Shown: positions 7,805 to 30,635 of the stretch, piece by piece
Layout of the letters: the number at the start of each line of letters is the position of its first letter
Position numbering within the stretch: position 1 is the first letter of the stretch
DNA from: Colletotrichum lupini
Taxonomy: Eukaryota; Ascomycota; Sordariomycetes; Glomerellales; Glomerellaceae
Reading direction: 5' to 3'
Assembly: GCF_023278565.1 (NCBI RefSeq)
Contig: NC_064679.1
Coordinates: 2,108,001-2,172,000, forward strand
DNA length: 64,000 nucleotides
Notes under the pieces: generated by a model
The model's input: the letters and a program-made list of their open reading frames with translations, nothing else
What the model was told of the DNA's origin: nothing
Database searches by the model: none
Position numbers and translations under genes: made by a program

Positions 7805-8643
7805 ATGAAGACTTCTGCCACTCTTTTGGCCTTTGTGGCCGCTTCCAATGCCTCGCCTCTTGGTGTCTCTGTCAAGCGGGATGCCTTTGATAGCAAGGAT
7901 GCCATGTGCAAAGGATGGGATCTCACAACTCCCGAGGGCGCGGACAAGCTCTGGGAAGATACCTACGCCGGAGCATCTCTTGACCTCTTCATCAAGTCTC
8001 AGTGGGGTAAAGTGTTCAACGGTCTTTCTTGCCATGAACTTCAATTCTAATGAAAGTCTTACGGACAGAACACGAGAACTCTTGGGTGAAGAACCTCGAA
8101 GACTTAGTCTCAGGTGGCACATCTGGCAAGTCCGGTGCTGCCGGCTGCTCGGCTCTTGGAAACGAGTGCAAGCCGTTGAACGACATGACCTGCGATGCCC
8201 AATACGACGCATACGGCAAGACCCCTATCGGCAAGAACTCCTACTGGATCTTCCAAGCAGTCAAGGGCATGCATGCCAAGTTCAACGAGCTGAATCGTCA
8301 GCTCACCAAGGAGACTCTCATCAGCGGACTGCAGATTGGTCAGATGGTGACCGACTTCCAAGGAAACCAGGACGACCCTGGCGACGTCCTTGGCTGGCTT
8401 TCCGCCGCCGCTTCCATGGGTGGTGCTAGCGGTGGTCTGGTTCCTGGAGCTGTAAGTTTGCCAATCTCTGAGGAGTCTGTGACGTTTTCAGGACTCTTGC
8501 TAACGCATTGCTGCGACAGGGAACTGCCATCGCTGGTGGCTTCGGCATGCTCAGCGGCATCTTCTCTGGACTGGCTGCCTCTAACAGCGCCGATGATATC
8601 GATCAAGGCTCAATTTCAGCCGCCCTAGCTGACGCTTTCAAGC
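7805..8643 (+). pseudogene. 5' part of a secreted-protein gene, broken by an LTR retrotransposon
   Basis: Exons are 7805-8006, 8070-8451 less one base by frame (exon 2 is read as 8069-8451) and 8520-8643. Introns are 8007-8068 and 8452-8519, with GT..AG ends and CTAAT/CTAAC branch sites. The product has a signal peptide (about 1-16), a likely Kex2 site (K24-R25), a Cys-containing N-terminal domain and a Gly/Ala-rich hydrophobic segment. The layout resembles fungal secreted proteins of the DUF7872 type, though that call is tentative. The frame is intact until 8643, where the LTR begins with TGTCACG; the open frame then runs some way into the LTR, which is artefactual. The 3' part lies at 23237-23895 on the - strand and joins in frame (codon split C|AA), giving 455 residues in total. 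No premature stop is seen in either part. Confidence 0.9.
8639..8643 (+). repeat. target-site duplication CAAGC (outer left)
   Basis: These five bases directly precede the LTR start TGTCACG at 8644. The partner copy is the reverse complement GCTTG at 23896-23900, at the inner end of the other element. A matching duplication on the wrong element is the signature of an inversion. Confidence 0.88.
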
Positions 8644-8819
8644 TGTCACGAGTTATAGCACGCAGCAATAAGCATACGGAGTATAATAAAAGTGGCTTAA
8701 CTATTAAAATAAAAATAGATAAAAAAAAAGGTCTATATATATAATATCTAAAATAGATACGTAATTTAGTACGTAACGGGTACTTTAGAAAACACGATTA
8801 CTATCCCTATTACGTAATA
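8644..8819 (-). repeat. LTR of copy 1 (3' LTR, left end)
   Basis: About 176 bases starting TGTCACGAG and ending ACGTAATA (from an ancestral TGACA-type end, by comparison with 23901). The same sequence recurs at 17138-17314 and, inverted, at 23901-24074 and 30454-30630. Confidence 0.9.
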
Positions 8820-8830
8820 TACCCCCTAAT
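8820..8830 (-). other. polypurine tract of copy 1
   Basis: On the - strand this reads ATTAGGGGGTA and abuts the LTR. The identical sequence precedes the 3' LTR of copy 2. It sets the element's orientation. Confidence 0.65.
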
Positions 8831-9270
8831 TACTACTATTAAAGAGCTATTATACTTAAAATAAAATCTTTAAATACTTTTGTAAAAGCCTAATTTAGTT
8901 AAATATAAATAAATAAAAAATAAGTATAAGGGATATATATTTTTTAAACCGCGTTTATTATAAATATTTTTATTTATTTAAAATAAATAAAATCCTAACT
9001 TAAAATAGTGCGTATTTTATTATTTCTAATATATAAATTACTAAGAGCGAGGCTACTTAGCTACTTTATATATATCTAAATTCTTATAGTATTACTTAAT
9101 TAAATTTTTTTTTCTTTTTAACCTTTTATAATTATTATAAATACTTTTATTTATTACGCGCGCGCGTTTATATTATTAAATTATTTACTAATTTTATTTT
9201 AAATATAAATATCTAATATATTTAAAAATAATAATAAGTTTTATATATTTTTTATAATACTTCTTATATA

Positions 9271-10671
9271 CGTATTATATAGTTTACTAAGAGTTTAAAT
9301 AAGTAATAATACTAACGAGCCCCTCTAAGTTATTACCCCCCCTTATAATTTCTTATTTATTTATTAAAACCTAGTTACTAAGCTCTCTCTCCCTAACTAA
9401 GAGAATATTAAAATTATTAATTAAAATACTAAGGACTTTATTAAATTTAAAGCTCTTTTTAATAACTATAATAAAAGTAATAATAAAATAAATAGTAATA
9501 ATAAAAGCTTTAATAAGCTTTTACTTATCCCCCCCTTAGAGTTTAAAAATAAAAATAAAACTAATTTAAATAATAAGCCCTCTAAAAAAAGTATATTATA
9601 TACTTATTATCTTAAGAATTTATATTTAATATTATTTTAAAATTTAAAAAACATAAGGCTAGCTCTTTTTAAAAAAGTAATAAAAAGTAAAAAAGAACGT
9701 TAAGAAGCTAAAGTACCCCCTATAATAAATATAATTCTCTTCGCTATTCTAAGCTTATTTAATATATACTTAATCCTTAAAAAGCTTAAAAAAGAGGCTC
9801 TTAAGGAATAGGAGATTTAATACTTACTTTATTTTAAAATAGCCTTTTAATATACTAATCTTAAGGATAGTAGTTATTATTTTATAAAAAATAATAACTA
9901 ATATACGCGCTATTTTAATAGCCGTTTGATTAAAAAGTATATTAATATATTAATTATTTTATAATTAATAACCTAGGCCTTTACCGAGGTTATTATAAAT
10001 AACGCTCTTTTTTTTATAAATATATTATCCTTTTTTATTATTAAAAAGCGCACTTCTAATTATAATTTTAATAAAATATTACTAAGCTCTATAATATTAT
10101 TTACTAAATATATAATAATTAAAAAATATATAAGAACTATATTAGCTTTTATATAAAGGACTTCTTTAATATATACCCTTAGTTCTTTTTTATACTTATT
10201 ATAATCGTTTATAATTAACTTTTTATTATATTACTTATTTTTATATTTTAAGTTATTAACTTAATAGTCGTTGTAACTCTTATACCCCCTATTACCCCCG
10301 CTATTCTTAGTTTTATAAACTTTAAAATATATAAAACGCGTTTTTTAATATATATACTAACCCTCTTTTTTAATAACGCTATATTCTTAGTAATTACGTA
10401 CTTTATAAATTAAGAGTTTAAATAATAAATATAAACCTAGGTTTTATTTTTATATATATATACCCTATAAAATAAAGTTATTTTAAGAGTTTAGGCTTTC
10501 GGGCTAAGAGAGGTTTTTATTTTATTTATTTTAAACCTCTAAGCCGTACTCTAAGTTCCGTTTATTATTTATTTTTAAGTATTAAGCTTTTTTAAATATA
10601 GCCTAAATTAATTATTTTTAACTATTTTAGCTATTTATAATAGCTTTTTATATATTGTAAAAGTTAAGAAG
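9271..10671. mobile_element. nested insertion of about 1.4 kb inside copy 1
   Basis: Aligning copy 1 with the reverse complement of copy 2, homology stops near 9270 and resumes near 10672, while copy 2 is continuous (around 29480 on its strand). A short TATA repeat lies on both sides and could be a target duplication. The inserted sequence is as AT-rich as its host. I find no clear terminal repeats, and the ends are uncertain by about 10 bases. Confidence 0.6.
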
Positions 10672-13600
10672 TATATAAAAATATTTAAACTTAGCTTATA
10701 AAAAGTTTTTAATAAGTTTATTTATTAATATATTTTTTATTAATATATAAATAACCTTAAAACTACTTCTAATATACTCTTATCTTAGCTATATATTTTA
10801 TATATCGATATAATAAAGTTAAATAACTATTTTCTTTCCTTCCCTTATAATAAGTTAAATTATTTACTAATTATTGTAATTAATTAACTATACTTTTCTT
10901 AAGTTAAAAATAATATTTTTAAAAAAGTACTTTAAAACTATAATCTCTTTTATAGTTTTTTTAAAATAAAAAAGCTTAGCTTTAGTAATTGATATTATAA
11001 TTATTATTTAGTATGTTAATTCTTATTTAATTAAGCTATTGAAAAAGAATATTATATATCCTTAAAATAATCGTTATAATACTTTATTATTTATAAAACT
11101 AATATCTCTAGCTAAAAATAATAATTACGTACTTAGTATACTATTATAATAAAATATAAAATATCTCGTTATATAGAAATATCGGATATAGTAGTTAATT
11201 ATTTTAATATAAATTACGCTTAAGTTAGTTAAGAACTATAGTAATTATAAATAAGTAAAAGTAATATCTAATTTAATTATAATAGCTATATAAAGCATAC
11301 TCCTAACCTTTTCTTAATAACTCTTTATTTCCTTTTTTATTACTTACCCCTCGTTTAGTTTAAACTCTTTTTTAAAAAAAGGGGTAATTAAATATAATAA
11401 ATCTATAAAATTAAAACACTTAGTAACTTACTTAATATATATATTATAAATAAAATAAACCTTATAAATAATACGGTTTTATAAAATCCGTACTTTAAAA
11501 AAGTAATTAATTAGTCTATTCTTTTTAAAATTAATATATTCTTTTACATTATTAATAATCCCCTAAGCTACCTTTTAGTCGTCTTAATAATATAAAATAA
11601 TAAAATTATTAATATAAAATACTAATATTACTTTTTTATTTATAATTTAGTAAATATAAATCTCTTTATAATTATATATTATATTTATATTACGGAGTAT
11701 AAAAATAAAAGTTTAGAACTAAAAAATTAATAAATCTTAAAAGTTATATAGAGCGCGTTAGAGTTTATTTACTTTACTAATAACTTTATATTTTTCTAAA
11801 AGTTTAATAATTACTAGTTTTTCGCTCTTAAAAAGCGCGTTAAAAAATATATTAATAATATTATATTAGTTTACCTTATGGTCGAGTTAAGTAGCTATTA
11901 CTATTATAAACCTAAAAGCCTTTATAACGAGCGTTAAAATATACGTATTTTATAAAGGGTTAAGTAGTTATATATCCCCCCTTATATATATACGTACTTT
12001 TACCTTATTAACCTTATTATTAACGTTATACTTATAAATATATACCTATTTTAATAAAAATAAAATCCCTTATTTAAGATTATAATTAACCTCTTCTTAT
12101 ATATTAATATCCCTTAGCTTTTTTATTTTTATATTCATAATATCCCTAAGTAACTTTTATAATTATAATAAGAAATATTTAATATTACTAAACTTTTTTA
12201 ATAAGCTCTAGAAATTAATTTTAATAAGTCGTAGTTTTTAAACTCCTTTAAAGCGCTCTAAATAGGTCTTATAAACTACTCTTTTTACTACTTAATAAAG
12301 TATTATATATCCTATACTACTTTCTTTTATAACTTTTTATTAATTAAGTATAAAAATGATAAAAAAAGTAGTTTTAAAAACAGTTAAAATAATTACTATT
12401 TTCTATATTTAAATATAAAAACGTTATAAAAATACTATTATTAAAGTATTATAAAAATTTATAGGCCCGGTTTAAACGTCTAAAACCTAATAAAGCTTTA
12501 TTTAGTATTTAATAAAGTAGTTTTTATAAACTCTATTCTTATATAATAATAAAAATTTATTATAAAGATTCTTTATTAATATCGACTTTAGTATTAAGAA
12601 TTACTTCCTTATAATTAATACTTCGTTTACTATATATTTTAATATTTTATTAAGAACTATTAAGAATTAAAAACTTAAAAACTTTTATAATATATATAAG
12701 CGCTTATAAAAAAAACTATAAACTACGTAAAGCTATTTATAACTTAATTATTATATCCCCTTTTTTACTCTTACCCCTAAGCTTATATAAAGGGGTTATT
12801 TTAAAAATTAATAATAATAATAAAACTATATTAACCTTTTTAGCCTTATTTATTATATCCTAAAATACGTTTATTAATTACTTAGCGTCTTAAATAATTA
12901 AAAATTTAATAATAATACTATTTTTAATTATAGAGTTATTTTAAATATTGGTATTTTTAAAATCTAAATCTACTTCCCTAAATACTTAAACTAACTTATT
13001 ATTAATATTAAAAAGTTCTTATATTTCTTAAATTATTAAATTTACTTACTTACTTATAATAGCTTACTCCTTATATACGGGATTATAAAAAACTTCTTTA
13101 TTAAACTTAATATTTTTTATAATAAATACCTACTTAAGCGCGAGTACTTAGACTTTATATAAATTATATATTTTTAATATATATCTAACTAAGTATCCTA
13201 TATACTTATAAAAAAGCACTTTAAACTCTTTTTAATATATACCCCTCTTATAATCCCTAAAAAAAGGGTATATTTAGTAACTATATATATAAAAACTATT
13301 AAGATATAAAATAATTAATTTAAAATCCTATACTTAATAACCTATTTATTACTAATATTAATACCGCTTTTATTAATTAATTTTTATTATAATAAGCGAA
13401 TCTTTTTTATTAGCTTCTTATAAGGTAATATTATAAATAAAAACTACCGCTAGTACTATTTTATTTTATAAATTCGTAAAGAGGTTTATAAAAAAGTATA
13501 TTTTATAAGCTTTAGTAATTACGAGTTAACTTACTTTTTTAGCGTTATTTACGGGGTTATTTATATATAAAAATAGAAATTCTATTCTAATTCTTAGCTC

Positions 13601-14934
13601 TTTATATTACGTTTTATATACGTATTTAACATTTATAATTAGAAAAGTAGTCTTATTATTATTTTTAAAAAAGTAAATTAGAGTCCTTTTTTAATAATAA
13701 ATCGCTACTTCGAGGCTTTATAGTATAAAAAGCACTTTCTTTTCTATTTTAGTTTTTAAAAAGAACCCCCTAAGCTACTTATTATATTTATTAAAAGCTA
13801 TAAATATATATTATTATTTATTAAAAAGTAGTCCGAAATAAAAAAGATTTTAATATATATAGTACTATAGTTATAAAGCTCTTTTTAAGGGTAGTCTTTT
13901 TGAAATTACTATCTTAATTTTAAATAATATATACACTTTATATTTAATTTATAATAAAGGTTTAATACGTATACTTTATGTTTTATATAGTAATTAATAA
14001 AGAGTATTAAGTCCGAAATAACTTATTTTAAAGTATTAAAAAAGCGCGCTATTAAACCTTTTATAAGTATATTAATATAAGTAATAGAACTTCCTATAAC
14101 TAATTAATAATATAATATTAACTAAGCTTTATAAAATATACTTAAGGTTTACGAAAAAAGAATAGAATTAAAAAAGCTTATATTTAAAAAAAATTAAATT
14201 ATTTTTTTAAATAAGCTACTTTTTTATAGTATTTTTATAAAGCGTTCCTTATTATAAAGTATAATCTAGACTATAGTATTAGAGTGCGTTTCTATTTAGT
14301 AAAGTTTTTAAAACTATATTAATATAAAATCCCTTAATATAAGCGACGTTTTAAAGCTTTAAATCGTAAGTTCTCTTTTTTTTTAAGTTTATTTAAAATA
14401 CTTTTTATAATATAAGTACTATATATAGTAATAAGTAATATAATAGTTCCTAATTTAATATAGTTTCTATTATTTAATAATACGTAACTCTCGGGTTTAA
14501 ATAGGCTCTTATTATTAATTAAATATATTACTCTATAGCTATTTATTACTATATTTTAAAAAAGGGGGTAAGTACTATTTATAGGAGTATTAAAAATTAT
14601 ATTTATTTCTAAATTTTAACTTTTTATAAATATAATAACTACGTAGCCCTCGTTTTAGTTTATTAATAAGCTCGCTATAAATTAGTTAAAGGATTTTTTT
14701 AAAACCTAGGTTTTTTAAAAGTTTTATTATTTTTTAATTAACTAGCTTTTTTAAGCTTATTATAAAATAATTTCTACTTACTTAATTTAATAATAATAAG
14801 GACTTTTTTTATATAGCTCCTTAGTATTTATATTAATAACTTATCAACGTTTTAATTTATAAGTACTTATTTTAATTTTTAATACGCTATAGGGCGCTAT
14901 AAATATATATAATTATAAAAATATATAACGTTAC

Positions 14935-15975
14935 TTTTCCCCCCGATAGAATAATTTGCCGGGGCCGTACTATATATTACGTATTTAAAAAAAACTAGGT
15001 ATATTATGCTCTATACCTAACTACTAATTAAAATAGCTCCCGACCTTCCCCCGCTTCTAGTTATTTAGAGGGTAAGCTATACTTATTTTAATATATATAA
15101 GACCTCTTAGTACTAGCTTATATAAATAATTAGATTTTATATTATATACTCCTTTTTATTAAGGGTTAAGGAGCCCCTTATATATTCCCTTATATGTATA
15201 ATATAGCCCGTATTAAAAGGATTTTTAATTTTATAAAATATAATTTTTAAATTAATATTAATATATTAAATCTTAACGTCTATACTAACCCGGCTATTTA
15301 CGGCGTTCGTACTATTACTTAGCCGAATTTTATATTATTAAAAGGTATTTTACTAATCCTTAAGCGTACTTATATTAGTTATAATAGTTATAATATCGAG
15401 CTAGCTAAGGGTGCTTAGCCCGAGAGGGGTAGACTTATTAATAAGTATTTTTAGCCTACTAATTACTAACTATATACTAAGAGAGTAGTAGTTTATACAT
15501 TAATAAGTTTATTTAATAAATCTATTTAATAAATTTGTTTAGTTTAAATAGAAAGTAGTTTTAGGTAATATTAGAAGCGATAAGGATAAAAAAGTCTTTA
15601 CGAGCTCTAAGTAATAAATATTAGCTTATTTAGCCCTTTTTTTAGAAACTTTTACATTACTATTAAAGTTTAGAACCTCTATAGTTAAGGGCTACTTTTA
15701 ACTATTATAACTAATTATTATAACTAATTATTATAGCCAACTTCTACTATTAACCTTTTTAATTAGTACCGCTATGTAACGAAGAGGGTAGCTTATTTAT
15801 CCCGAATTATATAACGGTTTTCGTATCGAAATTATTATATTACGTTAAGTACGTACTTAGGGCATATTATGCGTATTATATAGTTAAAAAGTATATCGTA
15901 TCGTATAATTTCCTTTAAAAGCGTAATCCCGTTAAGGTCGATTTTTTATACTTATACAGCCGGAAAAAAACTATT
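14935..15975. mobile_element. nested insertion of about 1.04 kb inside copy 1
   Basis: Copy 2 lacks this sequence. The insertion is flanked by ATATATAACGTTAC on both sides (ending 14934 and spanning 15976-15989), of which the last 8 bases could be a hAT-size target duplication. The left end begins TTTTCCCCCCG and the right end finishes CCGGAAAAAAACT, an approximate inverted pair once RIP changes are allowed for. It is somewhat richer in GC than its host. The class is not certain; a DNA transposon or MITE-like element is my best guess. Confidence 0.6.
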
Positions 15976-17124
15976 ATATATAACGTTACGTTTATTATTT
16001 ATATTATTAACTAAGTTAGAGCGTTTAATAGAAATAAAACAAGCCCCTCTTTAATTTAAAAATTATTTAGTATATATATCCTAGGTTACTAAGCTATATA
16101 TATACATAATCTCCTCGAGGGTCCTCGTATACGTTTTAAAAACTATTAATTTACTAAAAGTTTTATATATATATTAGTTTTATATAAAGTTAAGTTTGGA
16201 CTTAATTATAACTAAAAAGTTAAGTATAATAATCTCTTTATTAATTTTTAAAATATTATATATTTTAGTTTAGAAATAAGTAAACTATTACTTTTTATAT
16301 TAATATTAAGGGTTAATTTTAGTTCTTATTTTATTAAGGGCTTATTAATATTCTTCTCGAACCGTGTTCCTTATTATTAATTTAAAGGGCGCAAATTCTT
16401 ATTTTAAATATTTAATAATTTGCTATATACTAAACTTAGCGCCGTTCTTAGTAACTTTTTAAAATACGTATTTATATAATATAATATTAATTAATTTTAT
16501 TAATTACTAAGTAAGGACTTTAATATATATATTAATAATATTACGTTTATAAGCTATAAATTACTCGTATTTAATATCGAGCTCTTATTATTTTTAAATA
16601 TTCTTAAGTATATATATTTTTTTTATAAGTATAGTATAAAAATAGATTTATTTATATAAAGTAAGTAATATAGCTAGTTTTATAAAAAAAACCCTAGCTT
16701 AGTCCTATAAATTACTTATACTTAAAAAAGTTAAAAAGTTCGTATTAAGAGTTATATTTAAAAGCTATTAATAGAGGATTTTTTAATTTTTTTAATCGTT
16801 TTTAAACGCTTTATAACGGGCTTAATAAACTTATAATTCTTTTTTATTGTAAGTTATAACTAATTATTTAAATTTAAAAAGTAAAATAAGTATTATAAAG
16901 GGGTTAAGGAATATGCTAAAATCTAAAGCGTTTAAGTTAATATATTTCTAAACCCTAACGCCCTTATTTATAATATAAAGTACGCTAAACTATTTAATTT
17001 AATAATTATAACTAATTACTTTAGCTTTGGCTAAAATAAGTATAAATAAGTTAATTATTTTAAAAAAAACTATAAGAATCGTATTAATAAATACGTTATT
17101 ATAATATAAGGTTTTAATTAATAA

Positions 17125-17137
17125 CTAGGTTTATAAT
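17125..17137 (-). other. primer-binding site of copy 1
   Basis: Read on the - strand next to the 5' LTR, this is AATTATAAACCTAG. Undoing presumed G-to-A changes gives GGTTATGAGCC, complementary to the anticodon loop of initiator tRNA-Met, i.e. half-tRNA priming as in Drosophila copia and Ty5. The match rests on assumed RIP changes. Confidence 0.45.
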
Positions 17138-17314
17138 TATTATAAGTTATAGTATGTAATAATAAGTATATAAAGTATAATAAAAGTAGCTTAATTATTA
17201 AAATAGAAATAGATAAAAAGAAAAGGTCTATATATATAATATTTAAAATAAATACGTAATTTAATACGTAACGGGCACTTCGTGAGATGCGATTACTATC
17301 CCTATTACGTAATA
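17138..17314 (-). repeat. LTR of copy 1 (5' LTR, right end)
   Basis: 177 bases matching 8644-8819 in the same direction. The right end reads CCCTATTACGTAATA, RIP-altered from the CCCTGTTACGTGACA kept at the inner end of copy 2. Confidence 0.88.
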
Positions 17315-17319
17315 ATAAG
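17315..17319 (+). repeat. target-site duplication ATAAG (inner end of copy 1)
   Basis: Follows the LTR end at 17314. Its partner is the reverse complement CTTAT at 30631-30635, beyond the outer end of copy 2. Confidence 0.85.
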
Positions 17320-17534
17320 ATAGAGTGAATTTTGAATAGCTCCTTTGAGATACTTGGTAAGGTCCTTCCCCTGAAATATTCATCTTACAATAGATACTAA
17401 ACTTTTGATGCCATTGGAGAGTGTGTGCTCTCCGCTTGCATATGCTCCCATCCTCGCGAGTATATCAAAACCGCAGCTTCTACAAACGCCAGATCTCCAT
17501 GCGACTTTCCAATGCTGCTGTCAACTATGAGCGT

Positions 17535-18710
17535 TCAATTTTGCCACCCAGTCTTTTGACGTTGTTCTTTCATCCGTTGGACGCAATCTGAACTCAAAGG
17601 TATTTCCATTTCGTTGATTGTTTTCTTCATGGCTTCCGAAATTCGCTCTGCTGGGTTGCATTCCGGGTGCTTCTCATAGCAAGTAGCGTATGACAACACC
17701 CTCTTAAGAGACTTGAGTAAGTCCATGATGCTCTCGTCGGCTCTGATTGTTACTTCCGTCGCTCTCGATCCTCGAACATAGATGAGGCCAGCCAATACAC
17801 TTCCGAGCACGACATAGTCGCATTTTTTATTCCGAGTTACGGGAATTCCGGAAATGCCAGCGCAGAGCCATTTCCCATCTACCAATCTACCGATAACCCC
17901 ATTGAGGTGTGAAGGTAGCTCTGCGGCGAGTTGACTGCGTAAGGTACGGATGGTTTCTGAGATATTCTTAGCATGGGGCTTGAGCGAACGCGGAACGTGA
18001 GGGCGTTTACCAGGTATGGTCGGCGAGCCCAGAGAGTCATAGAAATATTCTTCTAGGCGTATCCCGTCCGGAGTGGCCATGTGACCTTGATCATCTATGA
18101 TGCAGGTAAGGCTGATCTTGATGATGGTCCTTGCAAACAGTCTCTCATCGCCCAATGCCCAAGCAATGCAAGACAGCATCGCCAGATCCCGGCCGTCTCT
18201 GGTGCTCTCAGAGGTCTTCATCATACCGTACCACTGCGCAATCCACGGTTGAAAGACATGTTCCATCTCATACAAGCTTGCCAGACAAAGAGTGTGGTAA
18301 ATTTCCGTGAGACTAGGATCCTTCGGTACGAGTGAGAATTTTGCATGGATGATGTTGAGCAGGATCATCAATCCGTCCGACTTGTCGTGCTGGCAAGCGT
18401 ACAACGATGGAGTCCATCCGCACCACTCCTCGTCGCCCGGCTGAGCTTTTGACGTTGTCTCAATGAGTGTGCGCCTCCAGAATGGTGAGGCTCGTCGTAA
18501 TGTGTTTGAACATACGCGAAATGATTTGGTGGTGCCGGTAGAAGAATCGGAGCCGACGTGCAGCAGTAGATCTCCCGTCGAGTCTATTTGAATCTCGTCT
18601 TCGTCTGTGAATGCGTCTTCTGGCGGTGTTTGAACCCATTCGCTGTCCATATCACTGTCATATGCGTCTACCGCAGTAGCTGATCGAAGAGCCAAGTTCT
18701 TGAACTCCAT
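17535..18710 (-). CDS. BTB/POZ domain protein
   Basis: An intronless frame of 391 residues. After an acidic N-terminus (1-45), residues about 46-160 carry a fungal BTB/POZ fold: D-L-L-L-H-V-G near 48, F-R-V-C-S-N-T-L-R-R-A-S-P-F-W near 64-78, then the L-L-N-I-I-H-A-K-F and L-Y-E-M-E segments. This is the common Pezizomycotina form in which a degenerate BTB stands alone. BTB domains mediate protein-protein contacts, often as Cul3 adaptors or in transcription complexes; the partner here is unknown. The remaining 230 residues show no motif I recognise. The gene lies within the inverted segment and its frame is undamaged. Confidence 0.85.
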   Translation of the reverse strand: MEFKNLALRSATAVDAYDSDMDSEWVQTPPEDAFTDEDEIQIDSTGDLLLHVGSDSSTGTTKSFRVCSNTLRRASPFWRRTLIETTSKAQPGDEEWCGWTPSLYACQHDKSDGLMILLNIIHAKFSLVPKDPSLTEIYHTLCLASLYEMEHVFQPWIAQWYGMMKTSESTRDGRDLAMLSCIAWALGDERLFARTIIKISLTCIIDDQGHMATPDGIRLEEYFYDSLGSPTIPGKRPHVPRSLKPHAKNISETIRTLRSQLAAELPSHLNGVIGRLVDGKWLCAGISGIPVTRNKKCDYVVLGSVLAGLIYVRGSRATEVTIRADESIMDLLKSLKRVLSYATCYEKHPECNPAERISEAMKKTINEMEIPLSSDCVQRMKEQRQKTGWQN

Positions 18711-19514
18711 GCTTCACAGTTTTGTTCGATTGTGAGGAAGAGAGATGAATCCCGTTGAGAAGAGTAGAGAATGTTAGTGAACAATATTAGTACCTAGGCG
18801 AGACGCGCGGTGATGTCGTCCAAGCCCAGTGCAGCACCGCCCACCGGGCCAACCTCAGCACGGAGGTCACGGGGCATCTTGGGATGTCATGTCGCGTTAC
18901 ATGGTAGAGTTTTGTGGTTCCGTTAAACTCTGTTGAAGCGCAGACAATGGAGAGGCAGCTGAGGGGAAGGGAAACGCACGGAAGTGCCAGTTTTACGTAA
19001 TGATACACGCTCAGCAACGAACAGACTGAGCTGATAGGTTAGCGATGCTTGGCATCTCGTACATGGAAACAACCAAAAGCAACCAAAAGCAAGGTTGACA
19101 GAGTCAATTTGGTCTCTCCTCCACGTTGATCAGAGCTGTTTCGCGGGGAAGGACCCGGGCTCCGGAGGTCAGGCGGGATGGTCCGTCTGGGCTTGGCCTT
19201 GTTCTGGATTGAGGCCAGAGCTTCTTCCGCACTTCATGTTGAGACTCATCGTGCGGAGAATGACGAAGTCTGGGCATATGACTAAGCTCTACTGATTCAG
19301 GGAACTTTCAGCCAAGAATTCGACTGAGGAGGAAATATCCTCGAAAAGAATTGAGAACTAGGCTTTGGTCACAGCTCATATGATTTGCGGGATTTGTAAT
19401 TGGGGTTGCACATCTATGAATATGAATTACCTGTTGGCTTTTGACCTTCTGAGCTACTAGATATATTTCCTGAAAGGCGATCTGGTCCTTAAAGACAGCG
19501 CTTATACCCATTCA
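18711..19514. other. upstream region of the BTB gene
   Basis: No gene is supported. A perfect 10-bp tandem pair AACCAAAAGC lies at 19071-19090. The right side passes abruptly into AT-rich, RIP-like sequence near 19515. Confidence 0.5.
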
Positions 19515-22500
19515 AATTAATTAAACAAATAAGTCAAATAAACAGTTAAATTTAAGAATTTTAGCAAGTTAAATAATTAAATATTATAAGGCCCTATATT
19601 TAATATATTTAATTAAATATAAGGTCGCTTAGAAAAAAGAAAATCCGGGGCCGGGCTAATTAAAAATCGATATTCCTAACTATACCCTATAGAAGTTTAT
19701 AATTAAGAATATAAATACTTAGAGCGGGATTCGAACCTGCGACTCTTTACTTACGATTATAAGTTCGGTATTATACTACTTAACTAAATAGATTATTAGT
19801 AATTACTATAAAAAAAAAAGGGCCTAAGTATTATAAAGCCCTGAATTTAGTATCTTATTATATTTAAAAATCTAAAAAACCTTTAATACCCCCTTTTTTT
19901 AATATTAATAAAACTAACGAAGTTACGTATTACTATTTCTAATCCTTTATAATTATTATAATTATCGTTAATATTCATTAAATTATATATTAATCGATTT
20001 ACTATATTATAATTAATTAATTAGTAATAAGTTATACGATTTTTAGTACGTAGTTATTATTTCGGATTACTTTATAGTTATAAACCTTAACTAACGCTAG
20101 CCTTATATTATTAACCGATCTTAATAATTATAATAGCCTCCTCGCCCTTTTAAAAGTAATTTAAAAAGGGAGGACTTTTATTAATAATAATTTAATATTA
20201 TAAAAAGGTATAAAGCTAAAGAAGTCGTAGATCCGCTTAGAGGGGGTCTTTACTTAAGAGATTTATAATAAAAATATTCGAAATAAAGTTTTTTAATTTT
20301 ATTATCGCTACGATAAAATAGGGATTATTATTTATTTTAAAATAGTAGCTACGAGCTTAGTAACGGCTTATTTAAAATTAAAATACTAAGTAATAGATCT
20401 AAGCTTTAGTAAGTTATTATATTTATTAAAATCCTCTAAGTACGACTTTATATTAAAAAAATAGAAACTTATTTTTAATACTATTATAAAGGGCTAAGTA
20501 ACGAGAATTAAGGAATTAGTAATTAGGTATATTATTAATAATAATAGCCTATTTATAACCTTTTATAATCCTTACCTCCGGGCCCTCCTTTATTAGTTAG
20601 ATTATAATATTACTAACGAACTCTTATTATTATATAGAAATATAAAAAAGGAGCTAAGTAGGATCTTTACTAAGAAAAAAGATATAATTAAAGTAGAGAT
20701 CTAGAGGTTAATAATAAAAGTCTACTTATTATTTAATTTATAAACCTTATTAACGTAAAATATTATTATTATTATTTTTACTTATTTTCTAAACTATATT
20801 AAGTAATAAATATAATACCTTATGACTTTACGGCGATAGTATAGTACCTATAATAGGGCTAACATTACTTAGATTATAAAATTAATAATAAACGACTAGG
20901 AATTAGGTAACTAAGTCGGAGTAGTTATTTATAATAATACTTTAAATAATAATACTTATTTAAGTTATTTATATTTTATATTATTTTATACCTATATTTA
21001 AAAAGATATTCTTAACTAAAAGATAAGGTATTATAGTTATATTCTTAACCTCGTTAATAGGGCCTTTTTATTTGGTAATAATAAAGAGGTATTTAAATAA
21101 GAATTAAATATATTAATTAATACTAAGTAATTTTAAAAAGATCTTAACTTCTAGTATATAAGGGGCCCTATTAGTAAGCTTTAGAACGTTATTAAATTTA
21201 TTTACTTATTACCTTAACGATATAAAGCCTTTTTCGAGGTTAGTAATAAGACCGACGAGAACGATATATTTACTTTTTTTAAAGAGTTATTATAAGAGCT
21301 TATACTAATGCTTAATAATAATATAAAATAGAATTCGATATATTTTATAATATAGCGCTTTTTATAAAAAAGAAAGTAGATCTATACTTTCTTAATAACT
21401 AGTCGAGCTTATAAAGATCTAAAGTAATAGATCCCTATCAAGGACGTTTTTAATAATAATAATTAGTAGTTACTAACTAAGCTAAAGGTAGTACTTAAGC
21501 TATTTTATTTTTAAATAATAAGATATTAGGGCTGGGGTAAAGGAGACGGTTATAGCTATTTATAAAAAATAATAATAAGTCTCGAGTACTTTATTAACTA
21601 TTTTCAAGAGTAAAAGAAGTTATATAATAAACTTTTTAAAGAAGAGATAGATTTTATAGCTTTTTAAATCGTAGTATTATAATCGTAATTAACGTAAATA
21701 ATACTACTTCGTTAGTAATTAGCTCGTTATTAATTTATATCCTAACTTCTTTTTTAACCTCTAATTTTAAATAATATCCCTTATTATATTTAGTTTAAAT
21801 ATATACTTAAGGAGCGGGTAGAGCTACTTTTGAATAGTGATTTTAACTCGCGAGGATACTTCTAATTATTAATTATTAATACTTAGTAAGTCCTTAATAA
21901 GTATTATACTAAGTTAGGTAACTCTCTACTCTATACTATAGTAATTATTTTTTATTTTAAGTAAGGATTAAAATAGTTAGAGAAGAGGTAGGATATACTT
22001 AAATAAAGCTACTAACTATTTAATATAAAAAAAGGACTTTACGATTATTAATAAAAATAGTATATAAACGAAATAGTAAGTCCTCTTCTTTTTTATTATT
22101 TAAGTCCTCTTTTTTTATTACGATAGTTATAAGTTATTTTTAATACTCTTATGATTTTAGAAAGTATTATAAAAGACTTATAATATTAATAATAGTTAAT
22201 ATTTTAAATAATAAATATAATAATTAACTACGTACTTAAGCTTAATTAATATTACTTATAGATTATCCCTTAGCCGGTCCTTAACTTAATTTAATAGTAA
22301 ATTAACTATTAGCTAACCTATTTAATATTAAATAAGCTTATATTTAATATTTTTACGATCCTTACGATAGTAATAAATTATAAGAGGATATTTAGCTTTG
22401 CGAAGTTAATTTTAATTTTATAGCGATTATTAATAAGATTTTCTATACTAAAAGAGGTTTAATATTTTAAAAACTAGCTTTATAGTAGTACTATAGAAGT

Positions 22501-22695
22501 AAGAAGTTAATTTTTTAATTAGAAAAGCTAATTAAAATAAAGTCTATAAGTTAGTACTATAAGGACTTTCGTAATAGCTTTATTTAATTCCCGATTAGGA
22601 AATTAGTTAAATTTATTAATTAATTGTTAAATAATTAAATATGGCGCGAGAAATGAGCTAAATAATTAAATACGAACCTTATATTTAATTTATTT
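19515..22695. mobile_element. AT-rich, RIP-degraded repeat block, element type unknown
   Basis: About 3.2 kb with the same loss of CA/TG and dense stops as the retrotransposon copies, but it does not align with them. Similar A/T-rich motifs around TTAAATAATTAAATA and CCTTATATTTAAT occur near both ends (about 19570-19620 and 22627-22700), perhaps decayed terminal repeats. A tRNA-like sequence lies near the left end. No coding domain can be read. It is probably an old transposable element. Confidence 0.6.
19717..19791 (-). tRNA. decayed tRNA-like sequence (pseudo-tRNA or SINE head)
   Basis: The - strand has a perfect B-box (GGTTCGAATCC) with a T-stem that needs one RIP-type change to pair fully, and an A-box-like TAGTTAAGTAG about 45 bases upstream. 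The anticodon stem and acceptor do not pair properly, so it is not a working tRNA. Its place near the edge of an AT-rich repeat suits a tRNA-derived SINE head or a tRNA captured by a repeat and RIP-mutated. Confidence 0.45.
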
Positions 22696-23236
22696 ATATG
22701 GGTATAAGCGCTGCTTAAAGAAATAAAGACTTAGAGTTACTATAAAATGAGCATGAGTATATTTTAACTTCCTTCTGGGAGAGCTAATATTTGTGCTAAA
22801 GGCAAATTCACTCGACTTGGACCCTAACAGGTATGTTGACCAGTGACTTCTTTTTCTTCTAGTGTGTATTGTACAAAAGCTTTAACCTCGTCTACATGGT
22901 CAACTATAGGTTCCTCGGCGTAGACTGCTACTATCATAAATCTCAAGAGGTGCTGAAGTAGTCAGGCTCTCCTTTATGAAGTGAAGCAATGATGTGAATT
23001 CTATAGATAAGTCGAATTGATATCAAGAGTCCGATGTGGAGATATCGAAAGAATGAGGAAGATGAGGGGGACTTCAGGATGTTAAGAGGGTCCACTCGAG
23101 GCTTGAACTTTGTTATTAGGCAATTCTGAACTAAGCTAATAAATTACAGGTATATACAGAGTTTGAAGGCTAGTACACGATAAGAGAAAACCTGGTACCT
23201 GGGAAGGAGACTGACAAGACCTATTGCCACGACCAT
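22696..23236. other. 3' flank of the displaced gene half
   Basis: Ordinary base composition returns near 22740. There is no open frame of note. On the - strand this follows the stop codon of the secreted-protein gene and probably includes its original 3' untranslated region. Confidence 0.5.
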
Positions 23237-23895
23237 TTAAGAGATCGGGGTGGCAGCGATGTAGTTGCAATCCGCGTTATCAAACGGGCTACCGCAGCCA
23301 GTCTTGGTATCCTTGTCGATGAACATCGCTGGCAGGTTGAAGTAGCACGTAGGGACCTTGCCCCAAGCCAAGTTGCTCAAGTCAACCTTATCCTTGTCAT
23401 CTCCACCGTTGAGCGCGCAGTCAATGATGGCGCGGTAGTACGGTTCACGGTTGCCGAGTCCGTACGAGGCCATCTTGTCGTAGATATCGGACTCAACCTC
23501 GGCCCAGTCGTTGTCAGGGCCCGGGTTGGGGTTGTTGCGCATGATGTAGAAGCAGTACTCCTCGCCATCCCGCAGCGCCATCCACTGCCGACCTGTGGCA
23601 TATCCGCAGGTCTCGCGAGACTTGACGTCATCGCGCTTGTCAGCGACGAGGTAGAGCTTGGCGGCGCTCATGACGTCGTTAGCGACCTTGGGCTTGATGT
23701 TGTTACTGATGGACTGGAGGGCGACAGTGACGGCCTGCTCGTCGTCGTCGACGAGGAACCAGCCGCCATTATAGAACTTTGTGATCTTGCTCTGGTAGGT
23801 ATCCCACTTGGGGGCCGGGAGCGAGTCGTACTCCGCCTGGCTGGTGCCGCCGCCGGTGGCGATGCGGAGGGTATTCTCAAGGGCACCAGTAGCTT
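23237..23895 (-). pseudogene. 3' part of the broken secreted-protein gene, displaced by inversion
   Basis: This 659-base open stretch on the - strand ends in a stop at 23237 and has no start of its own that would make a full gene. An internal ATG at 23671 is in frame, but nothing suggests it is used. Its first two bases complete the codon left open at 8643. The fragment encodes the C-terminal 219 residues, rich in Asp, Asn, Gly and Tyr with at least five Cys, fitting an extracellular disulfide-bonded domain. GC content is high, with no RIP-type stops. Unless transcribed from an LTR promoter, it should be silent. Confidence 0.9.
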
Positions 23896-23900
23896 GCTTG
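23896..23900 (-). repeat. target-site duplication GCTTG (inner end of copy 2)
   Basis: Reverse complement of CAAGC at 8639-8643. It separates the 3' gene part from the LTR start at 23901. Confidence 0.88.
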
Positions 23901-24074
23901 TGTCACGTAACAGGGATAGTAATCACATCTCACGAAGTACCCGTCACGTACTGAATTACGTATCTATTTTAAATATTATATATATAGACCCTTTTTTTTT
24001 CTTTTCTATTTTAATAATTAAGCTATTTTTATTATACTCTGTATACTTATTACTACGTATTATAACTCGTAATA
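23901..24074 (+). repeat. LTR of copy 2 (5' LTR)
   Basis: 174 bases starting TGTCACGTAACAGGGATAG. The outer end is the least RIP-altered LTR end in the window and shows the TG..CA termini. Confidence 0.9.
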
Positions 24075-24088
24075 ATTATAAACTTAGC
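24075..24088 (+). other. primer-binding site of copy 2
   Basis: ATTATAAACTTAGC directly after the LTR. Reversing presumed RIP changes again gives a GGTTATGAGCC-like sequence complementary to the initiator tRNA-Met anticodon loop. Both copies support the same ancestral site. Confidence 0.45.
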
Positions 24089-27000
24089 TTTTAATTAAGA
24101 CCTTATATTACAATAACGTACTTATTAATACGATTTTTATAATTTTTTTTAAAATAATTAACTTATTTATACTTATTTTAGCTTAAGTTAAATTAACTAA
24201 TTATAATAGTTAAATTAAATAGTTTAACGTATTTTATACTATAAATAAGGGCGTCGGGGTTTAGAAGTATATTCACTTAGATATTTTAGATTTTAACGTA
24301 TTTTTTAACCCCTCTATAGTACTTATTTTATTTTTAAAATTTAGATAATTAGTTATAACCCGTAATAAAAAAGAACTATAAGCTTATTAAGCTTATTATA
24401 AAGTATTTAAAAATAACTAAAAAAACTAAGAAATCTTTTATTAATAGTTTTTAAATATAACTCTTAGTACGAACTTTTTAACTTCTTTAAGTATAAGTAA
24501 TTTATAAAATTAAGCTAGGTTTTTTTTTATAAAGCTAGTTATATTACTTATTTTATATAGATAAATCTATTCCTATATTATATTTATAAAAAGGATTTAT
24601 ATACTTAAACATATTTAAAAATAATAAGAGCTTAATACTAAATATAAATAACTTATAGCTTATAAACGTAATATTATTAATATATATATTAAAATCCTCG
24701 TTTAGTAATTAATAAAATTAATTAATATTATATTATATAAATACGTATTTTAAAAAATTATTAAGAACGGTACTAAGTTTAATATATAGCGAATTATAAG
24801 ATATTTAAAATAGGAATTTATGCCCCCTAAACTAATAATAAGGAATGCGGTTTAAAAAGAATATTAATAAGTTTTTAACAAACCGAGGACTAAAATTAAC
24901 CCTTAATATTAATATAAGGAGTAGTAGTTTATTTATTTCTAAACTAAAACGTATAATATTTTAGAAATTAGTAAAGAGATCGCTATACTCGATTTTTTAG
25001 TTATAATTAAGTTTAGATTTAATTTTATATAAGGCTAACGTATATATAAGATTTTTAGTAAATTAATAGTTTTTAGAACGTATATGAGGACCTTTAAGGA
25101 AATTACGTATATATTTAGTTTAGTAATTTAGGATATATATACTAAACGACTTTTAAGTTAAAGAGGGGCTTATTTCATTTTTACTAAATACTCTAATTTA
25201 GTTAATAACGTAAATAATAAGGGTAACGTTATATACCCTTATAATTACGTATATTTATAGTATTTTATAGCGTATTAAAAATTAAAATAAGTATTTATAA
25301 GCTAAAACGCTAGTAAGCTATTAATACGAGTACTAAGGAGCTATATAAAGAAAGTTTTTATTATTATTAAATTAAGTAAGTAGAAATTATTTTATAATAG
25401 GCTTAGGAAAGCTAGTTAGCTAAGGAATAATAGAACCCTTAAGAAACCTAAGCTTTTAAAAAGATCCTTTAATTAATTTATAACGAGCTTATTAATAAAT
25501 TAAGACGAGGGCTATGTAGTTATTATATTTATAAAAGGTTAAAATTTAAAACTAAACGTAATCTTTAATACTTTTATAGGTAGTACTTACCCCTTTTTTT
25601 AAAATATAATAATAAATAGTTATAAAATAATATATTTAGTAAATAATAAGAGCTTATTTAAACCTAAGAGTTATATACTATTAAGTAATAAAGATTATAT
25701 TAAATTAGGAATTATGATATTACTTATTACTATACGTAGTACTTATATTATAAAGGGCGTTTTAAATAGACTTAAAAAAAAGGGAACTTATAATTTAAAG
25801 TTTTAAAACGTTACTTATATTAAGGGATTTTATATTAATATAATTCTAAAAACTTTATTAAATAAAAACGTATTTTAATATTGCGGCTTAGATTATATTT
25901 TATAATAGGGAACGTTTTATAAGAATATTATTAAAAAGTAGCTTATTTAAAAAAATAATTTAGTTTTTTTTAAATATAAGCTCCTTTAATCCTATCCTTT
26001 TTTTATAAACTTTAAGTATATCTTATAGAGCTTAGTTAGTATTATATTATTAGTTAGTTATAAAAAATTCCGTTATTTATATTAATATATTTATAAGAGG
26101 TTTAATAGCGTGCTCTTTTAGTATTTTAAAATAGGTTATCTCGGATTTAATACTTTTTATTAATTACTATATAAGACTCGAGGTATATATATTAAACCTT
26201 TATTATAAATTAAATATAAAATATATATATTATCTAAAGCTAAGATAATAGTCTTAAGAGGACTACTCCTAAGAAGAGCTTTATAGCTTTAGTACTATAT
26301 ATACTAAGATCTTTTTTATTTTAAACTATTTTTTAGTAAATAATAATATATACTTATAGTTTTTAACGAATATAGTAAGTAGTTTAAGAGGTTCTTTTTA
26401 AGGATTAAAATAGAAAAAGAAGTGCTTTTTAGATTATAGAGCCTCGAAATAGTAATTCGTTATTAAAAAGGGATTTTAATTTATTTTTTTAAAAATAATA
26501 ATAAGACCGCTCTTTTAATTATAAATATTAAATATATATATAAAATATAATATAGCGAGCTAGGAATTAGAATAGAACTTTTATTTTTATATATAAAGGA
26601 ACTTATAGGTAATACTAAAAGAGTAAGTTAATTTATAATTACTAAAGCTTATAAGATATACCTTTTTATAAACTTTTTTATAAATTTATAGGACGAAATA
26701 GTGCTAGTAGTAATTTTTATTTATAATATGACTTTACGGGAGGCTAATAAAGGGGATTTACTTATTATAATAAAAATTAATTAATAAAAGTAGTATTAAT
26801 ATTAGTAATAAATAGGTTATTAAGTATAGGATTTTAAATTAATTATTTTATATCTTAATAGTTTTTATATATATAGTTACTAAATATACCCTTTTTTTAG
26901 GGATTATAAGAGGGGTATATATTAAAAAGAGTTTAAAGTGCTTTTTTATAAGTATATAGGATACTTAGTTAGATATATATTAAAAATATATAATTTATAT

Positions 27001-29615
27001 AAAGTCTAAGTACTCGCGCTTAAGTAGGTATTTATTATAAAAAATATTAAGTTTAATAAAGAAGTTTTTTATAATCCCGTATATAAGGAGTAAGCTATTA
27101 TAAGTAAGTAAGTAAATTTAATAATTTAAGAAATATAAGAACTTTTTAATATTAATAATAAGTTAGTTTAAGTATTTAGGGAAGTAGATTTAGATTTTAA
27201 AAATACCAATATTTAAAATAACTCTATAATTAAAAATAGTATTATTATTAAATTTTTAATTATTTAAGACGCTAAGTAATTAATAAACGTATTTTAGGAT
27301 ATAATAAATAAGGCTAAAAAGGTTAATATAGTTTTATTATTATTATTAATTTTTAAAATAACCCCTTTATATAAGCTTAGGGGTAAGAGTAAAAAAGGGG
27401 ATATAATAATTAAGTTATAAATAGCTTTACGTAGTTTATAGTTTTTTTTATAAGCGCTTATATATATTATAAAAGTTTTTAAGTTTTTAATTCTTAATAG
27501 TTCTTAATAAAATATTAAAATATATAGTAAACGAAGTATTAATTATAAGGAAGTAATTCTTAATACTAAAGTCGATATTAATAAAGAATCTTTATAATAA
27601 ATTTTTATTATTATATAAGAATAGAGTTTATAAAAACTACTTTATTAAATACTAAATAAAGCTTTATTAGGTTTTAGACGTTTAAACCGGGCCTATAAAT
27701 TTTTATAATACTTTAATAATAGTATTTTTATAACGTTTTTATATTTAAATATAGAAAATAGTAATTATTTTAACTGTTTTTAAAACTACTTTTTTTATCA
27801 TTTTTATACTTAATTAATAAAAAGTTATAAAAAAAAGTAGTATAGGATATATAATACTTTATTAAGTAGTAAAAAGAGTAGTTTATAAGACTTATTTAAA
27901 GCGCTCTAGAGGAGTTTAAAAACTACGACTTACTAAAGTTAACTTTTAGAGCTTATTAGAAAAGTTTAATAATATTAAATATCTCTTATTATAATTATAA
28001 AAACTACTTAGGAATATTATAAATAAAAAAATAAAAAAGCTAAAAGATATCAGTATATAAAAAGAGGTTAATTATAATTCTAAATAAGGGATTTTATTTT
28101 TATTAAAATAAGTATATATTTATAAGTATAATGTTAGTAACGAGGTTAATAAAGTAAAAGTACGTATATATATAAAGGGGGATATATAACTACTTAACTT
28201 TTTATAAAATACGTACATTTTAATACTTATTATAAAAGCCTTTAGGCTTATAATAATAATAACTACCTAATTTAACTTTAAAATAAACTAATATAATATT
28301 ATTAATATATTCTTTAACGCGCTTTTTAAAAATAAAAAGCTAGTAATTATTAAACTCTTAAAAAGATATAAGGTTATTAATAAAGTAAGTAAGCTTTAAT
28401 ACGCTCTATATAGCCTCCGAAACTTATTAATTTTCTAGTTCTAAACCTTTATTTCTATACTTTATAATATAAATATAATATATAACTACGAGGAAATTTA
28501 TATTTACTAAACTATAAATAAAAAAATAATACTAATATTTAATATTAATAATTTTATTATTTTATATTATTAAAATAATTAAAAAGCGGCTTAGGGGATC
28601 GTTAATAATATAAAAAATTATATTAATTTTAAAAAGAATAGACTAATTAATTACTTCTTTAGAGTACGGATTTTATAAAACCGTACTATTTATAAAGTTT
28701 ATTTTATTTATAACGTATATATTAAGTAAGTTACTAAGCGCTTCGATTTTATAAATTTATTATATTTAGCTACTCCTCTTTCTTAAAAAAAGTTTAAACT
28801 AAACGAGGGGTAGGTAATAAAAAAGGAAATAAAAAGCTATTAAAAAAAGGTTAGGAATATACTTTATATAGCTATTATAATTAGATTAAATATTATTTTT
28901 ATTTATTTATAATTATTATAGTTCTTAACTAACCTAAGTATAACCTATATTAAAGTAATTAATTATTATATTTAATATCTTTATATAATAAAATATTTTA
29001 TGCTCTATTATAATAATATAATAAGTATATAATTATTATTTTTAATTACGAATACTAGCTTTATAAATAATAAAATAATACGATAATTATCTTAGGGATA
29101 TATAATATTCTTTTTTAATAGCCTAATTTAATAGAAATTAGTATACTAAGTAATAGTTACGACGTTAATTATTAAAATTAAGCTTTTTTATTTTAAAAAA
29201 ACTATAAAAAAAACTATAACTATAAAGTACCTTTTTAAGAATATTACCCTTAACTTAAGAAAAGTATAATTAATTAATTACGATAATTAATAAATAATAC
29301 GACTCGTGGTAAGGAAAAGAAAAAGAATAGCTACTTAACTTTATTATATTAATATATAAAATATATAGCTAAGATAAGAGTATATTAAAAGTAGCTTAGA
29401 GGTTACTTATATATTAATAAAAAATATATTAATAAATAAACTTACTAAAAACCTTTTATAAGCTAAGTTCGAATATTTCTATATATAAAGGGTATTATAA
29501 AAATTACGTAAAACTTACTATTATTTTTAAATATATTAAATATTTATATTTAAAATAAAATTAGTAAACGATTCGATAGTATAGGCGCGCGCGCGCAATA
29601 GACGGGGGTACTTAT

Positions 29616-30128
29616 CTAGCACGTATAGCTTTAACGAGGTAATGCGGGATATTCTTATAAAGAATATAAAAAGTAAATATTCATATAGAAGCAGGAATAT
29701 ATGAATATAGGGGATATAAGCGTATATAAAAGAGGTTTTTGTAGTAAAGAGAGTAATATAGTTGAATTACTATATGAGAAGTTGCTTGCTTAACGAAAGG
29801 TCTAGGTAGGCAAATACACGCCTACATATAGGCATAAAAACCTCTTACTAGAATATTCCATTGCTTATTAATTATGATATAATTAATAAGCGTATACGTA
29901 AGTGAATGCGTAATCGTAGTACGTAATTCCGCCTCGAGTAAATTCCAGATTATTCAGTTACCTTCCAGTACTTTCCACTGCTCACGTAAGCTTATATAAG
30001 CAGTATTGCTTACATAATCAATACCTATAATAATCTACAGAAATCGTAGATTAATATGGTATATAGTTTGCTTACGTCATATTGATAATAAGGCGAATAA
30101 TAAGGTAAACAAAGTTACCTTCGTAACA
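29616..30128 (-). mobile_element. 513-bp nested insertion in copy 2, probably a solo LTR
   Basis: Copy 1 lacks this block. It is flanked by ACTTAT on both sides (29610-29615 and 30129-30134). Read on the - strand it starts TGTTACGAAGGTAAC, like many fungal LTRs. It is visibly less AT-rich and keeps CA/TG dinucleotides, so it arrived after most RIP had hit its host, or was too short to be a RIP target. No coding capacity. The far end (GCTAG) does not show the canonical CA, so solo LTR is likely but not proven. Confidence 0.65.
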
Positions 30129-30442
30129 ACTTATAATAATTATAAAAAGTTAAAAAGAAAAAGAAAAATAATAGCTAAGCGACGCTATAAGAATTTAAAT
30201 ATATATAAAGTAGTTAAGTAGCCTCGCCCTTAGTAATTTATATATTAAAAATAGTAAAATACGTACTATTTTAAGTTAAGATTCTATTTATTTTAAATAA
30301 AAGGATATATTTATAATAAACGTAGTTTAAAAAACGTATATCCCTTATACTTATTTTTATTTATTTATATTTAACTAAATTAGGCCTTTATAAGGGTATT
30401 TAAAGATTTTATTTTAAATATAATAGCTCTTTAATAATAGTA

Positions 30443-30453
30443 ATTAGGGGGTA
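30443..30453 (+). other. polypurine tract of copy 2
   Basis: ATTAGGGGGTA immediately before the 3' LTR, identical to the tract of copy 1. Confidence 0.65.
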
Positions 30454-30630
30454 TATTATATAATAAGGATAGTAATTATATTTTATAAAGTACTTATTAT
30501 ATATTAAATTACGTATCTATTTTAAATATCGTATATATAGACCTTTTCCTTTTGTCTATTTCTACTTTAATAGTTAAGCTACTTTTATTATACTCCGTAT
30601 GCCCATTGTTGCGTGCCATAACTCGTGACA
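30454..30630 (+). repeat. LTR of copy 2 (3' LTR)
   Basis: 177 bases. The outer end reads GCCATAACTCGTGACA, the complement of the TGTCACGAG start of copy 1. The inner part is strongly RIP-mutated. Confidence 0.9.
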
Positions 30631-30635
30631 CTTAT
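30631..30635 (-). repeat. target-site duplication CTTAT (outer right)
   Basis: Reverse complement of ATAAG at 17315-17319. Confidence 0.85.

What the first reader, a model, noticed from the sequence alone, without database searches (positions are those of the whole stretch)
7805..23895. One secreted-protein gene split into two parts 15 kb apart on opposite strands, still joining in frame
The part at 7805-8643 (three exons) and the part at 23237-23895 (- strand) complete one another: the codon open at 8643 is closed by the first two bases of the second part, one duplication copy is removed, and no stop occurs in 455 residues. A signal peptide, Kex2-like site and Cys-rich tail make it effector-like. 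Insertion followed by inversion makes the loss irreversible by element excision, a route for permanent loss of a host-recognised protein.
Basis: partly seen in the sequence, partly recalled or inferred. Interest (0 to 1): 0.95.

Follow-up and report, generated by a model that had tools for sequence, protein, structure and literature searches.

The report
Gene split by retrotransposon-mediated inversion
In a plant-pathogenic fungus, one gene for a secreted-looking protein was cut by a retrotransposon and its back half was then flipped away when two opposite copies of that retrotransposon recombined; the event is unusually cleanly documented but of a known kind.

Summary
Searched apart, the two pieces land end to end on an intact 455-residue relative in Colletotrichum orchidophilum (exons: residues 1-67, 69-195, 196-236; second piece: 238-455; 90-98% identical), and on one paralog in the same genome. 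The host is most likely C. lupini (inferred).

Two LTR-retroelement copies in opposite orientation (8644-17314, 23901-30630) flank the flipped segment 17315-23900. Their 5-bp target duplications are exchanged; of 10 control copies, 7 have matching duplications, 2 differ at one base, 1 had no recognisable end. The copies are about 86% alike except for a 1,040-bp identical tract that the 38 other listed copies match at 88% or less: the likely crossover and gene-conversion site. As the tract itself is RIP-like, the exchange followed RIP-type mutation.

Not supported: effector or host-recognised status (no Pfam, NCBIfam or PDB match), and permanence (LTR elements do not excise anyway; the inversion is in principle reversible). 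Misassembly at the tract is not wholly excluded. Known kind; moderate interest.

The parts
7805..8643 (+). piece 1 of the split gene: N-terminal half, exons 7805-8006, 8069-8451, 8520-8643
   Evidence: exons map to residues 1-67, 69-195, 196-236 of P0009 at 91, 98 and 95% identity; the frame runs 33 residues into the element and stops at 8742
23237..23895 (-). piece 2 of the split gene: C-terminal half with stop codon
   Evidence: maps to residues 238-455 of P0009 at 90%; a stop lies four codons upstream inside the element, no Met in between, first Met at residue 75 of the piece
8644..17314 (+). LTR-retroelement copy A, RIP-like (GC 0.193, composite RIP index 1.39), LTRs about 175 bp
23901..30630 (-). 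LTR-retroelement copy B, same family, opposite orientation, RIP-like (GC 0.196, index 1.30)
8639..8643 (.). 5-bp target duplication, pair 1, first copy (left of A, in the gene)
   Evidence: partner at 23896-23900
23896..23900 (.). 5-bp target duplication, pair 1, second copy, inverted (beside B)
17315..17319 (.). 5-bp target duplication, pair 2, first copy (right of A)
   Evidence: partner at 30631-30635
30631..30635 (.). 5-bp target duplication, pair 2, second copy, inverted (right of B)
12325..13364 (+). 1,040-bp tract in A, 100% identical to B 26793-27832: likely crossover and gene-conversion site
26793..27832 (-). the identical tract in B
17315..23900 (.). inverted segment between the two copies (carries piece 2, a 392-codon open frame at 17535-18713 on -, and a hAT-like transposon)

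Best explanation
One gene for a predicted secreted protein of about 455 residues was broken in two steps. First, an LTR retroelement inserted in its third exon and duplicated 5 bp; a second copy of the same family sat, in opposite orientation, about 6.6 kb beyond the gene. Both were mutated by a RIP-like process. Then the two copies recombined with each other: a crossover in or next to a 1,040-bp tract flipped everything between them (17315-23900), with gene conversion of the tract, so that the C-terminal half now lies on the other strand beyond the first element. Shown by sequence: one gene, two inverted copies, exchanged duplications, identical tract. Inferred: order of the two insertions, conversion direction, exchange after RIP, loss of function.
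For: Pieces searched apart abut on P0009 and both hit 55 of 70 relatives; a paralog has them adjacent. Duplications are exchanged: 8639-8643 with 23896-23900 and 17315-17319 with 30631-30635 match 5 of 5 bases each, while neither copy's own pair matches. Control: of 10 other copies, 7 have matching own duplications, 2 have one mismatch, 1 had no recognisable 3' end. Tract of 1,040 identical bases in copies that otherwise differ at 717 of 5,168 aligned sites; the 38 other copies listed match the tract at 88% or less, and outside it B is no closer to A than other copies (B is 16th in the list). Strand bias of transitions switches at the tract as expected of chimeric copies (same labels p = 8e-7, swapped labels p = 0.39; 0 of 105 control pairs show as strong a flip).
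Against: No reads, no other strain and no relative's DNA could be examined, so the unbroken and uninverted arrangements were not seen. The strand-bias test is weak as a principle: in the 105 control pairs the left and right biases correlate at only 0.18. LTR comparison (A5 and B3 against B5 and A3) gave no clear pairing. An assembly error at the identical tract would give the same swapped flanks.
Confidence: 0.88

Rival explanations
1. Assembly artefact: the genome holds both elements uninverted, with a gene-conversion tract, and the assembler crossed over at the 1,040-bp identical repeat.
For: Swapped flanks and a switch exactly at an identical repeat are also what a misjoin gives.
Against: The repeat is 1 kb, the next longest exact matches between the copies are 58 bp or less, and the assembly is of chromosome scale (63.4 Mb in 12 contigs), so long reads probably span it (how it was sequenced was not seen). 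A misjoin alone does not make two 86%-alike copies identical over 1,040 bp.
Confidence: 0.09
2. One insertion in the gene, and an inversion with unrelated breakpoints (end joining or alternative transposition) that happened to end near a second copy.
For: None found beyond the presence of repeats at both ends.
Against: Both breakpoints lie within copies of one family and both duplication pairs are exchanged to the base.
Confidence: 0.02
3. The halves are parts of two different genes and the fit in frame is chance.
For: The fit of phase alone has a chance of 1 in 3.
Against: Intact relatives with both halves adjacent.
Confidence: 0.005

Closest known systems
Galileo-generated chromosomal inversions in Drosophila (PMC2775673; abstract statement and passages seen)
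   Same: Two copies in opposite orientation at the two breakpoints, exchanged target duplications, chimeric copies: the three marks that paper names.
   Different: Here an LTR retroelement, a RIP-mutated fungal genome, a small (6.6 kb) segment, one breakpoint inside a gene, and an identical conversion tract; the uninverted form was not seen here.
Transposon-mediated loss of avirulence genes in Cladosporium fulvum (PMC10823647; abstract and one results section read)
   Same: Rearrangement between copies of a transposable element removes a gene for a secreted protein.
   Different: There deletions and a translocation shown between isolates with known avirulence genes; here an inversion that keeps both halves, one genome, and no known host recognition.
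Uncharacterised fungal protein family of P0009 and P0006 (F. graminearum FG05_07766)
   Same: Split gene is a member by sequence.
   Different: Family function unknown; FGSG_07766 (taken as the same locus from its number, recalled convention) appears once in a paper on cereal-infecting fungi, among putative effectors (PMC3914424, one passage seen).

Membership tests
Inversion by ectopic recombination between transposon copies | Two homologous copies in opposite orientation, one at each breakpoint | tested here: met
Inversion by ectopic recombination between transposon copies | Exchanged target-site duplications | tested here: met
   control copies
Inversion by ectopic recombination between transposon copies | Both copies chimeric | tested here: inconclusive
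   identical tract and switch of strand bias support it, but strand bias is only weakly a copy-wide property in controls and the LTRs show no clear pairing
Inversion by ectopic recombination between transposon copies | Uninverted arrangement in a related strain or species | not testable with these tools
   no fungal DNA collection other than this genome was available
LTR retrotransposon | Direct terminal repeats beginning TG and ending CA, short target duplication of fixed length | tested here: met
   5-bp duplications; terminal bases partly changed by RIP-type transitions
LTR retrotransposon | Reverse transcriptase and integrase genes; Copia or Gypsy type | not tested
   copies are heavily mutated; no coding search was run
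RIP-mutated repeat | TpA excess and loss of CpA/TpG; differences between copies nearly all transitions | tested here: met
   composite index 1.39 and 1.30 in the elements against -1.1 and -0.18 in the gene pieces; 729 of 774 mismatches are transitions
Fungal effector | Secretion signal | tested here: inconclusive
   hydrophobic N-terminus (hydropathy of the relative P0009) and the sequence by eye; no signal-peptide program was available
Fungal effector | Induced in the host, acts on or is recognised by the host | not testable with these tools
   no expression or host data seen for this gene

The most novel reading that the evidence does not exclude
The exchange happened after RIP, between copies only about 86% alike, in a lineage described as asexual, so that RIP-mutated repeats would remain live substrates for crossing over; and the N-terminal half has stayed under constraint since the split, living on as a shorter secreted protein that ends inside the LTR, while only the promoterless C-terminal half is decaying.
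Probability: 0.13. Interest if true: 0.65.

Novelty: new member of a known kind. Interest (0 to 1): 0.42.

Why it matters
It gives a base-exact case of how repeats in a repeat-rich pathogen genome break a gene: insertion, then reciprocal exchange between inverted copies, with the likely exchange site visible as an identical tract. If reads confirm it, it shows that RIP-type divergence of about 14% does not stop crossing over between copies, which bears on whether RIP protects fungal genomes from rearrangement. It also shows that gene-loss surveys by presence or absence may misread such a locus as two small genes.

Tried and rejected
Function of the family: Pfam on the exons, on piece 2 and on 40 aligned relatives gave no credible family, NCBIfam none (one E = 0.1 chance match), PDB by sequence none. 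A hydrophobic glycine-rich stretch in the middle of P0009 (windows starting at 174 and 187-198) might be membrane-active; not pursued.

LTR pairing as a test of the exchange: inconclusive. A first version of the strand-bias control used loci that were not turned to one strand; its numbers are discarded and one search replaces it. In one search, 105 of the 153 pairs among 18 control copies had more than 1,000 aligned bases on each side and were counted; 48 were dropped.

The third protein search gave 8 unlinked N-terminal fragments, frames read through an intron or cut short (seen for P0071, P0073 and P0075; alignments): no bearing on the question.

Constraint: changes special to the window's lineage number 2 in 235 residues of the N half and 15 in 218 of the C half, against 2 and 4 for C. 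orchidophilum (Fisher p = 0.0008, 15 against 4 p = 0.019). This was looked for after the fact. At least 4 of the 15 need two base changes in a codon (genetic code, no call), and no stop has arisen in piece 2, so divergence before the split is as likely as decay after it.

Literature: searches listed no paper whose title or abstract beginning describes this locus; most listed papers were not opened.

Full report
Setting. The window is G000:C6:2108001-2172000 of a 63,443,975-base assembly in 12 contigs. The paralog described below is 95% identical to a protein of Colletotrichum cuscutae and 92% to one of C. scovillei, so the organism belongs to the C. acutatum complex. In PMC11645255 (abstract, passages, sections 2.2, 2.3, 2.6 and part 1 of the methods seen) C. 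[quoted passage not shown] size and contig number fit C. lupini CLUP02. This naming is an inference. As this is probably a crop pathogen and the gene was called effector-like, its pieces were searched apart and never joined.

The observation. Piece 1 has three exons (7805-8006, 8069-8451, 8520-8643) and piece 2 one open frame on the other strand (23237-23895). Each is free of stops. The phase open at 8643 fits that of piece 2.

One gene. Piece 2 alone, with the search window widened so that full-length relatives could be found, hits 65 proteins; the best is P0009 of C. orchidophilum, 455 aa, a cluster of 64 member sequences. Against P0009, exon 1 covers 1-67 (91%), exon 2 69-195 (98%), exon 3 196-236 (95%) and piece 2 238-455 (90%). 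Of the 70 distinct relatives are hit by both exon 2 and piece 2 at E < 1e-5; the remaining 15 are records of 184-269 aa. The own genome holds the two pieces, one paralog on the same contig (C6, 4786.6-4788.3 kb) with both halves adjacent on one strand at 41% (exon 2) and 48% (piece 2), and one weak match (C4:1527469-1527960, 28%, E = 0.014). No intact copy of the split gene itself was found there.

Two elements, not one. AT-rich blocks 8644-17314 and 23901-30630 are inverted copies of one LTR element. They carry RIP-type marks: GC 0.19-0.20, composite RIP index 1.39 and 1.30 against -1.1 and -0.18 in the gene pieces, and 729 of 774 mismatches are transitions (this count includes the cross-matches between LTRs). 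The LTR is highly repeated (279 first-look candidates, 40 scored).

Exchanged duplications. The 5 bases left of A (8639-8643) match the inverted 5 bases beside B (23896-23900); the 5 bases right of A (17315-17319) match the inverted 5 bases right of B (30631-30635). Neither A's own two flanks nor B's own two flanks match. As control, both ends of 10 other copies were fetched: 7 have identical 5-bp duplications, 2 differ at one base by a transition, and in 1 no 3' end was recognisable. So the family makes 5-bp duplications, and A and B have swapped theirs.

The exchange site. A and B differ at 717 of 5,168 aligned sites outside one tract and at 0 of 1,040 inside it (A 12325-13364, B 26793-27832). 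A further 58 identical bases lie to its left beyond a single mismatch. In the genome only A and B share the tract exactly; the other 38 copies listed (of 139 first-look candidates, 40 scored) match it at 88% or less. For a neighbouring 1,041-bp control stretch B is only the 16th entry in the list for A, at 87%. Among 190 pairs of 20 copies the tract identity of A and B is 1.0 and the next highest 0.904. This is what a crossover with gene conversion leaves. Because the tract is itself RIP-like (GC 0.164) and identical, the exchange most likely came after RIP-type mutation; no change has accumulated in it since.

Chimerism. Left and right of the tract the strand bias of transitions between A and B is reversed (p = 8e-7 for equal labels, 0.39 when labels are swapped on one side). 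Against 18 other copies, mean bias is -0.252 (A left), -0.295 (tract), -0.247 (B right), but -0.033 (B left) and +0.064 (A right): A left, the tract and B right look like one original element. None of 105 control pairs shows as strong a reversal. Against this, left and right bias correlate only at 0.18 in the control pairs, so the test is supportive and not proof, and the four LTRs show no clear pairing.

What it does. The gene most likely no longer makes its full product. Piece 1 can be translated 33 residues into the LTR to a stop at 8742; piece 2 has lost its promoter and start, with its first Met at residue 75. Function of the family is unknown: no Pfam, NCBIfam or PDB relative. Members occur in many Fusarium and other Hypocreales records. 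Effector status and host recognition are not shown.

An oddity. The window's lineage has 15 private replacements in 218 residues of the C half and 2 in 235 of the N half; C. orchidophilum has 4 and 2, C. liriopes 23 and 29. The ratio of C-half to N-half divergence against P0009 is 2.06, above all 226 pairs among 39 full-length relatives with N divergence under 0.4 (the highest pair listed is 2.05). It may mean decay of the C half only, or earlier fast evolution; the test was post hoc.

Comparison. The three marks given for the Galileo inversion of Drosophila (PMC2775673, abstract statement and passages) are opposite orientation (met), exchanged duplications (met) and chimeric copies (supported, not proved). 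In fungi, transposon-mediated loss of avirulence genes is described for Cladosporium fulvum (PMC10823647, abstract and one section). The kind is known; this is a new, very clean member. [quoted passage not shown]

Noticed in passing
window 19496-22713: A RIP-like DNA transposon inside the inverted segment: 16-bp terminal inverted repeats beginning CAG and an 8-bp target duplication, the marks of a hAT element (class named from recall).
   Followed up: partly
window 14921-15989: About 1.05 kb present in A but not B, flanked by a 14-bp direct repeat: probably a nested insertion.
   Followed up: partly
window 9271-10671 and 29616-30135: A has 1.4 kb that B lacks, and several other copies have the same LTR-to-tract distance as A, so B is probably deleted; B has 520 bp that A lacks.
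   Followed up: no
window 7805-8643 and 23237-23895: The C half has many more lineage-private replacements than the N half.
   Followed up: partly
G000:C4:1527469-1527960 (L070): Weak match to the family (28%, E = 0.014) in an open frame of 480 aa: possibly a distant member.
   Followed up: no
window 17535-18713: 392-codon open frame on - inside the inverted segment, no Pfam match; its strand was flipped along with piece 2.
   Followed up: no
window 4637-6031, 31069-32305, 33977-35185, 36082-36507: Ordinary neighbours: AA9-like, FAD monooxygenase-like, fungal transcription factor-like and GH12-like open frames.
   Followed up: no
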